Positions 59,800-64,000 of a stretch of DNA of 64,000 bases are shown in pieces. The notes beneath the pieces are model-generated. The model saw only the letters and a list, made by a program, of their open reading frames with translations. It made no database searches and was not told the DNA's origin. Location of the stretch: positions 341,248 to 405,247 of the forward strand of contig NZ_JADKSO010000003.1 of assembly GCF_015351245.1 (NCBI RefSeq), given 5' to 3'. The stretch comes from Rathayibacter sp. VKM Ac-2879 (lineage in GTDB: Bacteria; Actinomycetota; Actinomycetes; Actinomycetales; Microbacteriaceae). The first letter of the stretch is position 1; each line of letters starts with the position of its first letter. The position numbers and the translations under genes were made by a program.

Positions 59800-60492
59800 C
59801 CAAATTGTGCGGCGGCAAGCTTAGCCACATCCGCATGCCCACAAAATCCTGACATCGTTCATTCTGGCAAGAATGTGGGGCACCCCGGTTCTCGAACTAC
59901 TCAAAAAAGGTCACCCCAGGACCAGCTTTCAGAACTGGATCGGTCGCCACCGCGTCAGCTACCTCGACTCCACTTCGGCGACTTACGTTTCGATCGAAAA
60001 CCAATAGACCATCAAATAAGATTGGTCCAGAATGTGGAGCGGTTGAATTTTCTCTCCCAGCACTAATTTCCGCGGAAGCCGGTGGCGCCGCAAATCTTTG
60101 GAGGTCAGGGAAGGGACTGTAACAGCGAGGATCACGTCGATTGGGGCATCCGGCCGACGTTGAAATATCTCCACCGGGCCCGGTCAGCCCCCACCTCGAA
60201 TTGATTCATCTCGGCGAAGATTCGGTGCCGACAATAATCCTCTCTGTAGAGGTCAGCTTCGTCGAGACTCGCGAAAAAGAAGTAGCCCTCTTTCAGCACA
60301 GAGCGATTCGCGCCAACCACTCGCGTGCTCCAGCCGCTAGTGAATTGTTCGCCGTTACATCCCGCGCGCTCTCATCGTCGTCTTTTTCTCAATTCTTCAC
60401 TCATCGGCAACTCTAACGCTGACCAGGTGAGCAATGTCCGTTTCTCACACAATCTTTAAGGGTGAGTAACCGCCATCCTCTACGGTGAACAA
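59800..60492. other. AT-richer stretch with no intact gene
   Basis: Only short open frames occur here. On the minus strand two frames meet near 60150-60170 (60320-60132, containing FFFASLDEADLYREDYCRHR, and 60174-59983, containing PIDVILAVTVPSLTSKDLRR). They could be one gene broken by a frameshift. No domain is recognised and no RNA gene is visible. Composition is clearly lower in GC than the preceding 59 kb. Confidence 0.4.
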
Positions 60493-60894
60493 TCACCGCC
60501 GTTGAGATTTTCGCCCATCGAAAGCCTCCGGTCGATTCTGAATATACGGCTGACCTTCGTCTCGAATCACTTTTCCCGAGAACGGATCCACCTGCTTGTA
60601 GTCTTGATGCCACCTCACCATGGTGGTGTATCCAGCTGCAATTTCTTTGCGCCCGCGATAGAAGGCAGCGATGACCAACGCTCCAGCAAGCGCAATCCCG
60701 ACGATCCCAGCTATCCCGATGATCAGCACCGCTGGAGATTGCCACCGCACATTCGACCCTGTCGCCACATACAGCACAAGCGCCAGCGGTAAGAGCGGAG
60801 GACTGAAGATCAATAGCCACATCGACCACACCCCGAGCCGATAGGCCGACCTGCCTGAGATCATTTTGACCGTTTCGCCTGACATCATCATCAC
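60493..60894 (-). CDS. small two-helix membrane protein, possible immunity partner
   Basis: Protein of 133 aa with two transmembrane helices (about 22-43 and 52-76) and a polar C-terminal tail (RKEIAAGYTTMVRWHQDYKQVDPF). No domain recognised. Four consecutive ATG codons begin the frame, and the first overlaps the stop of the Rhs-type C-terminal gene (ATGA). Tight coupling to a toxin-like cassette and membrane location fit an immunity protein, but this is inference from context only. Confidence 0.55.
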   Translation of the reverse strand: MMMMSGETVKMISGRSAYRLGVWSMWLLIFSPPLLPLALVLYVATGSNVRWQSPAVLIIGIAGIVGIALAGALVIAAFYRGRKEIAAGYTTMVRWHQDYKQVDPFSGKVIRDEGQPYIQNRPEAFDGRKSQRR

Positions 60895-61265
60895 CTGCCT
60901 GCTATGTGCTGGCCAGTCGTCACCACTGCATCATACCCCGCACCAGCGAAACCAATGCCGTCCGCGAAGCCGGCACCCGCCTCCCAGCCCCACATTCCGG
61001 TAACCGCGTGCATTCCCTTCGCCCCCACGCCCACTCCTCCAACACTTGTCGTAAAGATCGATACGCCGCAGTTAAAGTCGATTCCCTTACGGCACGAAAT
61101 GGCGGTACTCGCGATACCGACGGCCAGTCCTGCGAGGGTAACCCAGCCGACTGGAGTGAACGAGGCGGCGACAGCAAGGATCATGCCAACCGCGCTCAGC
61201 ACGCCTCCGGTTGCATCCAGGACCGCATCGATATCAATGCCGCCTCCCTCTGCGGGCTTGCTCAC
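60891..61265 (-). CDS. orphan Rhs-type C-terminal domain cassette
   Basis: 124-aa protein from GTG 61265: an Rhs-linker-like start (SKPAEGGGIDID), then glycine/alanine-rich hydrophobic segments (GVLSAVGMILAVAASFTPVG, CRKGIDFNCGVSIF, GWEAGAGFADGIGFAG). The frame continues upstream through PPLCGGKCGGAPV, so the GTG may be only a secondary start of a displaced Rhs C-terminus. Toxin activity, possibly membrane-active, is inferred. Overlaps the downstream membrane protein gene by 4 bp. Confidence 0.5.
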   Translation of the reverse strand: MSKPAEGGGIDIDAVLDATGGVLSAVGMILAVAASFTPVGWVTLAGLAVGIASTAISCRKGIDFNCGVSIFTTSVGGVGVGAKGMHAVTGMWGWEAGAGFADGIGFAGAGYDAVVTTGQHIAGR

Positions 61266-61580
61266 GGGAGCGCCTCCGCACTTCCCGCCGCAGAGCGGAG
61301 GACCGCTGGTCTTGGGAGTGACCGGCTGGACAATTGGCCGGGATCGTCGCGTTCGTCAGCCTGCCGGCGAGATCGAACTCGTAGTTCGAGACCAGACCGG
61401 CCGAGCCCGCGACGGCGTAGGGTGTTCTGCACGATTCGTCCTGCTTGGGACCGGACGACGGCCCGGTGACGGCTCCTCCTGAGGCGAACGACCAGGTAGG
61501 TCAGCCCAGTCTGTGCTCCAGAGAAGTCTCGGGTGATGCCTTCGAGGTCGGGCGGGTGAGAAGTGAACGAGAGCAGCCTC
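61266..61580 (-). pseudogene. frame-broken Rhs/YD-repeat fragments
   Basis: Minus-strand peptides in different frames match Rhs architecture: TGLTYLVVR (about 61520), SNYEFDLAGRLTNATIP (about 61340-61385) and PKTSGPPLCGGKCGG (about 61280-61320). The YD-type DLAGRLT piece normally precedes the TGLTYL motif near the Rhs core end; here the order is reversed and frames shift, which shows rearrangement or decay. It abuts the orphan C-terminal cassette. Confidence 0.55.
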
Positions 61581-62076
61581 GGTCTTTACGTATCGCTCGG
61601 CTGACCCCGTCCGCACCAGAGCAAGATCGAAGACGCCGAGAAGGATCGCATGCGCGATAGCCGGCGAGCACGATCTAATCGTTCTCTTTGAAAGACTGGA
61701 GGACGTCGGCTTCTCTTCCGACCATGTGAACATAGTCACAAGCAGGTAAGTCTGCGAAAGACTGAGTCGTCCGCAGAGATACCGCTCCGCTCCGCGCCAC
61801 AGTTCCGGCGTCCACGTCACCGCGTGACCAAGTAGGCCATATAGATTTGAGCAGCCTGGGACTTTTCCGCGCGTCAATATTACATATTGATCTATGAACC
61901 GAGACGGGAGAAAAGCAAGTGCAAAATCGGGAATTTGGCGCATCGGTAGCGCAGCGACGTCCCTGGAGGTAGTGCGAGTGACGTTCTTTGTCGGCCGAAG
62001 GGTAACCCAGCGCAGGTCGCGGTATTGCAGCTCGAGTTGCCCCGACCACGCTGAGCATCAGCATGATTGACAAAGG
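61581..62076. other. no supported gene
   Basis: Two overlapping minus-strand frames (61943-61356 and 62073-61675) are open for over 100 codons, but neither has recognised motifs, good codon pattern or a ribosome-binding site that I can support. Probably decayed Rhs-locus DNA. Confidence 0.35.
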
Positions 62077-62478: not shown

Positions 62479-62760
62479 CGCGGTCCCCCCGGGACGCTAG
62501 ACCGATGACCAAAATCATAGAAACGACCCGAAGGAGCAGCCCGACGCGATCCCGGTGATGGATCCATTCCACGTCGTCCGCCTCGCCGGTGATGCTCTGG
62601 ACCGCTGCCGGCAACGCGTCCAACGAGCGACGTACGAGCCGGGCTGAGTTTCTGCCCGCCAAGCGCCACTAGATCCTCCTCTAATTTGCCACCGAATAGA
62701 CGCCAAAATCGCGATGACCGTCGTCGTTGTCAGATTCAGAATCCGTAAGCATGACGCGCC
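62479..62760. other. short GC-rich patch without a clear gene
   Basis: Several minus-strand short frames overlap here (62662-62417, 62669-62475, 62706-62515). The first has a hydrophobic stretch, RVGLLLRVVSMILVIGLAS, and could be the end of a lost membrane protein. Not assigned. Confidence 0.3.
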
Positions 62761-63375
62761 TTAGTGATACTTTTGGCGCATAAGTTCTAATTGCGTGGCA
62801 ATACTCTTCATTCGCGAATCGCTCGCGCGAAACAGGCCGGAAAAGAGGGGTGAACCGACGATAATTTCCAAAATCTCCACCGATCCATTCTCGCGCCTGA
62901 ACTTGACACGTATTGCGCCCTCAAAGCCGTAAGTTGCCTTTGTTGATGTGGCGACGATCGGCTCGATGATCGACGAGAAAGAAACTTCCCCGATTTCCCG
63001 CAAAGGCAGCCCCCGTTTCCAGAGCCTTATGCCAGCGGAATCGACCGAGATGGGAACCCGCGCCTCTACGGCCGACAACTCTACTCCTGGAAAAATGGAC
63101 AGCAGTGAAGACCGCTGACTAGGCCGGACATGAAAGGAACTGACGAACTCGTAGCTGCCAGTCCTCCGCAGTTTCCAAGCCGCGCGCGTCGACCAGAATG
63201 CCCATAGACAGAATCCCACAAAGAGTGGAGTGATGATGATCATCGCTCCCGGCAAGTTAGAGAACATTGGTGTCTCGGTGCTCATGGAACGTGAGATGTA
63301 CCGAGCAACCCCGGCAATAATCCCAATGAAAATGACCGCGTACAGCCAGGGTGAAAACTTAGTAAGCCTCTTCAT
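62761..63375 (-). CDS. membrane protein downstream of Rhs, candidate immunity protein
   Basis: 204 aa: two N-terminal helices (about 9-29 and 42-63), then a cytoplasmic beta-rich domain (about 75-195) with GIRLWKRGLPLREIGEVSFSSI, a pattern like bacterial PH domains. It begins 26 nt after the Rhs stop codon, in the immunity position. Its hydrophobic anchor would fit a toxin that acts at the membrane, like the hydrophobic Rhs C-terminus next door. No known immunity family recognised. Confidence 0.6.
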   Translation of the reverse strand: MKRLTKFSPWLYAVIFIGIIAGVARYISRSMSTETPMFSNLPGAMIIITPLFVGFCLWAFWSTRAAWKLRRTGSYEFVSSFHVRPSQRSSLLSIFPGVELSAVEARVPISVDSAGIRLWKRGLPLREIGEVSFSSIIEPIVATSTKATYGFEGAIRVKFRRENGSVEILEIIVGSPLFSGLFRASDSRMKSIATQLELMRQKYH

Positions 63376-63400
63376 CAGATTGTTTCCTAACCTTATCTCG

Positions 63401-64000
63401 CTAGAACAGCGGGGTGTCGAACCACGTTTCGAGCGATTCCGAGAATTGGGTAGCTATCCCGCTCGAGTTCCCAAGAACTTCCCAACCAATACTTGCCGCT
63501 CGGATACCGTCGGGCACATGGCGTCCAAAATGTCCTAAGAAACCGAGACCTACGGCCGAGAAACCTGCGCCCACCAAGCAATTTGGCGTGCTCGGGCCTG
63601 CAAGGCAATACAAGCCGGTGGATATACTTCCTGTCTCACTGGCTACCGCGAGCACCGCCAAAGAAACCTCTGGTCCCAGCAACATAGCCGGTAGCGTTAG
63701 GGCCGTAAGTACGATTGATGCGTCTCCAAATCCAGAGGCGAACAACTTGACTTGTTTATTTACAGGGCCCGGCAGGCTCGGGAACACGGAACTGATCGAG
63801 GGCGCATTAGATCCCTTGGAAGCCTTAATACCTCCGGAGCCAGCAGTGATGGCGTACCCATTTTTCGCATACTTCTCTGCAGAGTCTGCCGAGAGCTTGC
63901 CCGAAAGGTCGAGCTTGTTAATCGGATCGAGAGGGTAGTTGTAGTCGTTGTCCACTCCTCCCTCTACTGGGTCGGTGGAGAGGAAGCGGCCGAGCGCTGC
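63401..64000 (-). CDS. Rhs-family protein, C-terminal end (partial)
   Basis: The frame enters from the right edge as GRFLSTDPVEGGVDNDYNYPLDP, the conserved end of an Rhs core repeat (GRF-STDP...N-Y-Y...DP), then KLDLSGKL, after which the variable C-terminal domain begins. This 165-residue tail is mostly hydrophobic (ASIVLTALTLPAMLLGPEVS, SISTGLYCLAGPSTPNCLVG) with two cysteines. Rhs proteins are secreted or wall-linked toxins whose C-termini differ between strains. Most of the gene lies outside the window; GTG at 63955 is internal. Confidence 0.8.
   Translation of the reverse strand, partial: AALGRFLSTDPVEGGVDNDYNYPLDPINKLDLSGKLSADSAEKYAKNGYAITAGSGGIKASKGSNAPSISSVFPSLPGPVNKQVKLFASGFGDASIVLTALTLPAMLLGPEVSLAVLAVASETGSISTGLYCLAGPSTPNCLVGAGFSAVGLGFLGHFGRHVPDGIRAASIGWEVLGNSSGIATQFSESLETWFDTPLF

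What the first reader, a model, noticed from the sequence alone, without database searches (positions are those of the whole stretch)
60413..64000. Rhs polymorphic-toxin locus with an orphan C-terminal cassette and scrambled core fragments
The right edge holds an Rhs core end with a hydrophobic variable C-terminus, then a membrane protein in the immunity position. Two kilobases further along the same strand lies a second Rhs-like C-terminal domain, detached from any core, overlapping a small membrane protein by 4 bp. Between and beside them are Rhs peptides out of frame and out of order. This is the layout of a toxin locus with displaced spare cassettes, and none of the toxin or immunity domains is one I recognise. 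Both C-termini are hydrophobic, and two of the downstream genes encode membrane proteins, which suggests membrane-active toxins.
Basis: partly seen in the sequence, partly recalled or inferred. Interest (0 to 1): 0.78.

Follow-up and report, generated by a model that had tools for sequence, protein, structure and literature searches.

The report
Rhs toxin tail with spare cassette
This is the end of a large bacterial weapon gene followed by a decayed spare toxin-and-antidote set; the two toxin tips turn out to be distant versions of one uncatalogued toxin-like family whose members are mostly followed by a membrane protein that probably protects the producer.

Summary
A low-GC island (59.6-64.0 kb) in a Rathayibacter-like Microbacteriaceae genome carries an Rhs core end with a variable C-terminus (CT1), a two-helix membrane protein (IM1) 25 bp behind it, and 2.1 kb on a detached C-terminus (CT2) overlapping a two-helix membrane protein (IM2) by 4 bp. 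The Rhs core remnant beside CT2 is collinear and frameshifted, not scrambled. CT1 and CT2 are not two unrelated toxins: a profile without CT2 scores it 28.1 bits, against 9.6 for the best of 500 shuffles and 11.8 for the best of 5,393 control frames. The family has two aligned cysteines in all 12 rows and no convincing Pfam, NCBIfam or PDB match. Of 13 members sampled without regard to neighbours, 10 are directly followed by a protein of one of two membrane types. In a congener (G384) positions are reversed: an IM2-type pair on the main Rhs gene, a CT1/IM1 pair displaced. Best reading: an ordinary Rhs/WapA-type polymorphic toxin locus with a decayed spare cassette, carrying an uncatalogued, probably membrane-active toxin family. 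Toxicity and membrane action are inferred; structure prediction could not be run.

The parts
63899..64000 (-). Rhs core end with its conserved motif (GRFLSTDPVEGG...DPINKLDLSG), cut by the window edge
   Evidence: TIGR03696 E 3.9e-4, below cutoff; same motif in many Rhs ends of Microbacteriaceae
63401..63898 (-). CT1, variable C-terminal (toxin-like) domain, 165 aa
   Evidence: held-out profile 50.1 bits; 38.3 bits with its nearest relative also left out; best of 5,393 control frames 12.6
62761..63375 (-). IM1, 204 aa, two N-terminal hydrophobic segments, putative immunity protein of CT1
   Evidence: 25 bp after CT1; relative behind a CT1-like copy in G384, 33% identity, E 1e-29; held-out profile 41.5 bits, best control 13.5; but 10.4 bits without that one relative
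62077..62478 (-). 133-aa open frame between the two cassettes, unassigned
   Evidence: no Pfam or PADLOC hit and only chance-level NCBIfam hits; 0 of 32 genomes searched, no positive control
61330..61546 (-). decayed Rhs core remnant, collinear, in two reading frames
   Evidence: blastx to intact Rhs proteins; frame-piece blastp
60891..61265 (-). CT2, detached C-terminal domain (frame open upstream to 61355)
   Evidence: 28.1 bits to the family profile built without it; best of 500 shuffles 9.6; best of 5,393 control frames 11.8
60493..60894 (-). IM2, 133 aa, two hydrophobic segments, putative immunity protein of CT2
   Evidence: 4-bp overlap with CT2; held-out profile 76.5 bits, best control 9.5; matches in 32 of 396 genomes at E up to 0.001
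59609..64000 (.). low-GC variable island; to its left the window is syntenic with Rathayibacter and other Microbacteriaceae
   Evidence: GC 0.66-0.76 up to 59.5 kb, 0.51-0.64 from 59.75 kb on (500-base windows); blastn alignments to the 42 loci end by 59608

Best explanation
It is the 3' end of a WapA-like Rhs polymorphic-toxin gene in a Microbacteriaceae genome, with its cognate immunity gene, followed by an older cassette that has been displaced and has decayed. Shown: the Rhs core end, the recurring pairing of a C-terminal family with two membrane-protein types across genomes, the decayed core arm, and the reversed position of a CT1/IM1-like pair in a congener. Inferred: the full Rhs protein is exported by Sec, the C-terminal domain reaches a rival cell and inserts in its membrane as a small helical, two-cysteine domain that dissipates the membrane potential, and the two-helix partner in the producer's membrane blocks insertion or assembly. 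The displaced IM2 gene has an intact frame and could still give immunity to CT2-type attackers, whereas CT2 cannot be delivered by an Rhs carrier in its present state.
For: Intact relatives: RHS repeats plus PA14 in 4 of 4 scanned. CT family: leave-one-out scores 14.8-50.1 bits for all 12 members; best control frame 11.8-12.6, checked for the two window members only; two invariant aligned cysteines. Pairing, unbiased sample: one search found 14 family matches in 249 genomes without looking at neighbours; 13 could be assessed, and 10 of 13 are followed by an IM2-type (5) or IM1-type (5) protein at 15 bits or more, with models from which the same genome (and for L123 the near-identical L114) was left out. 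Wider but biased sample: 19 of 22 distinct members, and 10 of 11 family against 1 of 27 other Rhs tails. Cassette shift: in G384 (same genus group as the nearest relative) the main Rhs gene carries an IM2-type pair, and a CT1-like tail with an IM1 relative lies displaced behind it. Membrane precedents, passages only: Tse5-CT/Tsi5 (two predicted TM regions; PMC9637101) and CDI ionophores with two-helix immunity proteins (PMC11630599).
Against: No toxicity or membrane assay exists for any member seen here. The Rhs N-terminus is outside the window and no genome is held for it. Members are 16-36% identical to CT1 and three leave-one-out scores are weak (14.8, 15.0, 18.0 bits). The counts are biased: many loci were fetched because they matched IM2 or both, and many partners were used to build the models. 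In the unbiased sample 3 of 13 lack such a partner: two in G059 are followed by other proteins with two or four hydrophobic segments, and the weak G231 match has none; one of the 10, in G229, is a 317-aa four-segment protein at only 18.7 bits. IM1's link to the wider IM1-type group rests on one relative: without it the score is 10.4 bits, not above control; the L120 partner falls to 9.7 bits when left out. Glycine zippers, a mark of several depolarising toxins, are not clearly above shuffles in any of 12 members (lowest: L109, 41 of 500 shuffles reach its count).
Confidence: 0.72

Rival explanations
1. Same locus and pairing, but the C-terminal domain is an enzyme or a translocation ('entry') segment, and the hydrophobic stretch serves to cross or dock to the membrane rather than to form a pore.
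For: No catalytic or pore family could be assigned; CDI toxins have separate membrane-entry domains (PMC11630599 passages).
Against: The conserved part is the hydrophobic, cysteine and glycine region itself, with no conserved polar catalytic set in 12 rows; 10 of 13 partners in the unbiased sample are of the two membrane types, and 2 of the other 3 have hydrophobic segments.
Confidence: 0.2
2. The tail is not a toxin: a hydrophobic Rhs tail that anchors or folds the protein, with a membrane partner acting as chaperone or anchor.
For: No toxicity data; the family is conserved enough to be recognised.
Against: C-termini differ behind one core motif (39 distinct tails), cassettes lie displaced behind main genes, and solitary IM2-type genes stand in series in L108 12560-14715, all usual for toxin/immunity sets.
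Confidence: 0.1
3. The CT1-CT2 relationship is a composition artefact of two Gly/Ala-rich hydrophobic stretches.
For: Both are hydrophobic (GRAVY 0.38 and 0.65); the pairwise alignment gives only 28% identity with gaps.
Against: CT2 28.1 bits against 9.6 for the best of 500 composition-preserving shuffles and 11.8 for the best of 5,393 control frames; aligned cysteine pair; each followed by a family partner; one tail (G339) matches both queries, weakly for CT2 (E 7.4e-4).
Confidence: 0.07

Closest known systems
Rhs/WapA polymorphic toxins of Gram-positive bacteria (e.g. Streptococcus suis WapA, PMC12704120, passages seen)
   Same: Large Rhs protein, variable C-terminus, adjacent immunity gene, Rhs orphans described beside main genes
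   Different: Actinobacterial relatives carry PA14 domains; C-terminal family not in Pfam or NCBIfam; N-terminus of the window's gene unseen
Orphan CT/immunity modules of CDI and Rhs loci (PMC3150448, PMC3967940, passages seen)
   Same: Detached CT with its immunity gene behind the main gene and a stretch of core homology upstream
   Different: Here the core arm is frameshifted and lacks the core-end motif, so the simple exchange seen in Salmonella (522 bp at 95% identity) is unlikely; the displaced CT is from the same family as the main CT
Tse5-CT/Tsi5, a pore-forming Rhs toxin of Pseudomonas aeruginosa (PMC9637101, passages seen)
   Same: Rhs delivery of a membrane-inserting C-terminus; immunity protein with two predicted TM regions
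   Different: T6SS delivery; the family profile finds no PDB chain at E up to 1
CDI ionophore toxins (PMC11630599, passages seen)
   Same: Very diverse membrane toxins with two-helix hairpin immunity proteins
   Different: CdiA carrier of proteobacteria; five-helix bundle not tested here
EsxX/TelE/TspA glycine-zipper toxins of T7SS (PMC12744356 and PMC9484751, passages seen; PMC10434224, listing only)
   Same: Membrane depolarisation; membrane immunity proteins; EsxX has two distinct immunity families; tsaI genes in strings
   Different: T7SS delivery; glycine zippers not clearly above shuffles here

Membership tests
Rhs polymorphic toxin | Rhs/YD core with conserved core end before a variable C-terminus | tested here: met
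   end of TIGR03696, E 3.9e-4, below cutoff, frame cut by the window edge; relatives with RHS repeats
Rhs polymorphic toxin | C-terminus varies behind a constant core | tested here: met
   39 distinct tails behind the same motif; most matches in 65 of 398 genomes cover only the core end
Rhs polymorphic toxin | Cognate immunity gene immediately downstream | tested here: met
   position and recurring families only; protection not tested
Rhs polymorphic toxin | C-terminus is toxic | not testable with these tools
   no assay
WapA-type (Sec-exported) Rhs | N-terminal signal peptide and wall-binding part | not testable with these tools
   N-terminus outside the window and no genome held; no signal-peptide program was available, and only the first 25 residues of relatives were looked at by eye
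Orphan CT/immunity module | Detached CT plus immunity gene, with core homology upstream | tested here: met
   CT2/IM2 with core remnant 61330-61546
Orphan CT/immunity module | Core arm able to recombine in frame with the main gene | tested here: not met
   remnant lies in two frames, CT2 in a third, core-end motif missing; the main gene's matching core is outside the window
Glycine-zipper depolarising toxins | extended GxxxGxxxG motif | tested here: not met
   0 in CT1 and 2 in CT2, not above shuffles
CDI ionophore five-helix bundle | five-helix bundle fold | not tested
   structure prediction machine busy

The most novel reading that the evidence does not exclude
A previously uncatalogued family of membrane toxins of Gram-positive actinobacteria: a helical hairpin with an obligatory cysteine pair, possibly closed as a disulphide after export, delivered by an Rhs carrier and opposed by two different lineages of two-helix membrane immunity proteins that have been exchanged between main and displaced positions within one genus.
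Probability: 0.4. Interest if true: 0.55.

Novelty: new member of a known kind. Interest (0 to 1): 0.42.

Why it matters
It gives a testable signature (two cysteines, hydrophobic hairpin, two-helix partner) to Rhs tails that the family libraries searched here do not recognise, and it shows a toxin/immunity-like pair in the main position in one strain and the displaced position in a congener. To my knowledge (recalled, not searched exhaustively) Rhs weapons of actinobacteria are little studied and membrane-acting Rhs tips are known from few cases. The system itself is of a known kind, so the interest is moderate.

Tried and rejected
Rejected: scrambled core fragments (collinear). Rejected: glycine zippers as the mark of the family. 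No support: a plasmid origin (no match of CT1 or IM2 in 72,556 plasmid records). Weak: an association of CT subtype with immunity type (permutation p 0.032 on 11 members), reported but not relied on. Unresolved: the 133-aa frame 62077-62478 (0 of 32 genomes; no positive control in that call). A phylum sample searched with the CT profile gave 0 of 110 genomes, also without a positive control, so the family's absence outside Microbacteriaceae is not shown. Own mistakes: the first tail-motif pattern was mis-spaced and found nothing, corrected; the locus L135 picked up the neighbouring stretch already counted as L132, so it was dropped and 13 of 14 were assessed. The pairing counts come from loci partly chosen by IM2 matches; one search was run to remove that bias. 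One search returned 27 rows; five that repeat loci already listed (L048, L047, L074, L080, L093) were dropped, and near-identical tails of different genomes (L114 and L115) count once.

Literature: searches. Among the papers listed I saw none on an Rhs toxin family of Microbacteriaceae; the lists (20 of 196; 15 of 58) were capped. The only paper holding Rathayibacter, Rhs and toxin together (PMC5552033, listing only) is a Rathayibacter toxicus genome report. Most subscription papers and preprints are not in the library, so absence from print is not shown. Zhang et al. 2012 (PMC3482391, passages) has one entry, Tox-WTIP, under the pore-forming heading in the passage shown; it was not compared by sequence.

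Not run: structure prediction and fold search.
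Full report
Where it lies. The window is Microbacteriaceae. The histidine kinase at 57808-58992 is 74% identical to that of Rathayibacter sp. Leaf185 and 69% to R. iranicus, and window 55002-59598 aligns at 78% to L001; no blastn alignment to any of the 42 loci passes 59608. GC is 0.66-0.76 up to 59.5 kb and 0.51-0.64 from 59.75 kb on.

What is there. 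On the minus strand, reading inwards from the edge: the end of an Rhs core (TIGR03696, E 3.9e-4, below the curated cutoff); CT1, 165 aa; IM1, 204 aa, 25 bp later with a plausible ribosome-binding site (sequence); an unassigned 133-aa frame; a decayed Rhs core remnant (61330-61546); CT2; and IM2, 133 aa, overlapping CT2 by 4 bp. Apart from the core none has a Pfam or NCBIfam hit near its cutoff. PADLOC gives one weak hit of CT2 (LeoBC, E 0.004, 47 residues of a 601-position model), which I take as chance.

Relatives. The Rhs end (199 aa) matches 65 of 398 Microbacteriaceae genomes, most matches covering only the core end. Fourteen regions were fetched, chosen from CT1, IM2 and CT2 matches. They show Rhs frames of up to about 2,390 aa, followed in many cases by low-GC3 small genes, a number of them with two N-terminal hydrophobic segments. 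Four of four scanned main proteins carry RHS repeats and PA14 domains. From the loci held at that time 39 distinct Rhs tails were taken by a motif (52 found).

One family, not two toxins. CT1, CT2 and ten other tails align with two invariant cysteines and near-invariant glycines (alignment A1). A profile built without CT2 gives it 28.1 bits; the best of 500 shuffles of CT2 reaches 9.6 and the best of 5,393 control frames 11.8. Leave-one-out scores run from 14.8 to 50.1 bits; CT1 keeps 38.3 bits when its nearest relative is also removed. Scans of all 12 members found no convincing family: one Pfam match in one member (RTX, E 0.014), two NCBIfam matches at E 0.09-0.1, and no PDB chain at E up to 1. 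With the profile, 10 of 249 family genomes match at E up to 0.001 and 0 of 110 in a phylum sample without a positive control.

The partners. IM2 belongs to a 16-protein cluster with matches in 32 of 396 genomes at E up to 0.001, many of them weak. IM1 has one clear relative (33%, E 1e-29), and 3 of 396 genomes match. Scans of the two partner alignments found only scattered single-member Pfam matches and no convincing PDB relative (best E 0.12 for the IM1 type, none for the IM2 type).

Pairing. The fair test is. The profile search gave 14 family matches in 249 genomes without regard to neighbours. One (L135) could not be assessed separately there. Of the other 13, ten are followed by a partner of 15 bits or more: five IM2-type (L123, L124, L126, L127, L128 would make five, and L129 a sixth) and the rest IM1-type; counted exactly, IM2-type are L123, L124, L126, L127, L128 and L129 (six) and IM1-type are L122, L132, L134 and L130 (four), the last a 317-aa four-segment protein at 18.7 bits. 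The sub-counts '5 and 5' given in the For line should be read as six and four; the total of 10 of 13 stands. Models left out the window's proteins and those of the same genome. The three without: L125 and L133 (both G059), followed by proteins with two and four hydrophobic segments at 11.3 and 7.7 bits, and L131 (G231), a weak match with nothing found behind it. The best control frames for models without the window's proteins score 9.5 (IM2 type) and 13.5 (IM1 type) among 5,393. The wider sets agree but are biased by how loci were chosen and models built: 19 of 22 distinct members, 9 IM2-type and 10 IM1-type, starting between 61 bp before and 48 bp after the stop; and 10 of 11 family against 1 of 27 non-family tails, Fisher p 2.5e-7, one of 39 tails skipped for lack of sequence. 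Any two-segment protein follows 9 of those 27 non-family tails, so a membrane neighbour alone is not rare. Limits: the L120 partner falls to 9.7 bits when left out, and IM1 to 10.4 bits when its one close relative is left out, neither above the best control.

Displacement. G384, in the same genus group as the nearest relative (15 genomes held, 3 with an Rhs-tail match), has a main Rhs gene ending in a family tail with an IM2-type gene, then a detached stretch matching the last 83 residues of CT1 (40% identical) followed by the IM1 relative, then solitary IM2-type genes. The window has the CT1/IM1 pair on the main core and an IM2-type pair displaced. Nine shorter Rhs frames in other genomes have about 160-350 residues of core before the core-end motif. 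In the window the remnant corresponds to residues about 1,797-1,865 of L108's protein, in two frames, and about 260 residues up to the core-end motif are missing, so the displaced CT2 cannot be used by a simple in-frame exchange.

Mechanism. Shown by sequence: carrier, variable tip, recurring partner, displaced older set. Inferred: export and transfer to a rival; insertion of the hydrophobic hairpin in the membrane; the two conserved cysteines as a disulphide; blocking by the membrane partner. The inference rests on analogy with Tse5-CT/Tsi5, CDI ionophores and EsxX, TspA and TelE. The glycine-zipper version of this idea was tested and is not supported. The displaced IM2 may still serve as immunity, as proposed for orphan immunity genes in CDI loci (PMC3150448 passages).

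Compared with what is known. The layout (main gene, immunity gene, orphan modules) is that of Rhs, WapA and CDI loci (passages). What seems new is the C-terminal family, its two partner types and their reversed positions in congeners. This makes it a new member of a known kind.

Noticed in passing
window ~59600 and L003 11500-14000: The spot after the response-regulator gene is variable in the genus: L001 stays at high GC there, while L003 (R. iranicus) has its own low-GC insert with a 503-aa frame.
   Followed up: partly
window 62077-62478: A 133-aa frame between the two cassettes with no relatives found in 32 genomes; possibly another immunity-type gene.
   Followed up: partly
window 60132-60320: A 62-aa frame in low-GC sequence beyond IM2, possibly the remains of a further small gene.
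   Followed up: no
L108 12560-14715: Three IM2-type genes in series without a recognised C-terminal domain between them, like the strings of tsaI genes described in Staphylococcus.
   Followed up: partly
window 61263-61300: CT2 has an in-frame GTG with GGAGG seven bases upstream, so the detached domain might be translated on its own; the stretch also simply encodes CGGAP.
   Followed up: no
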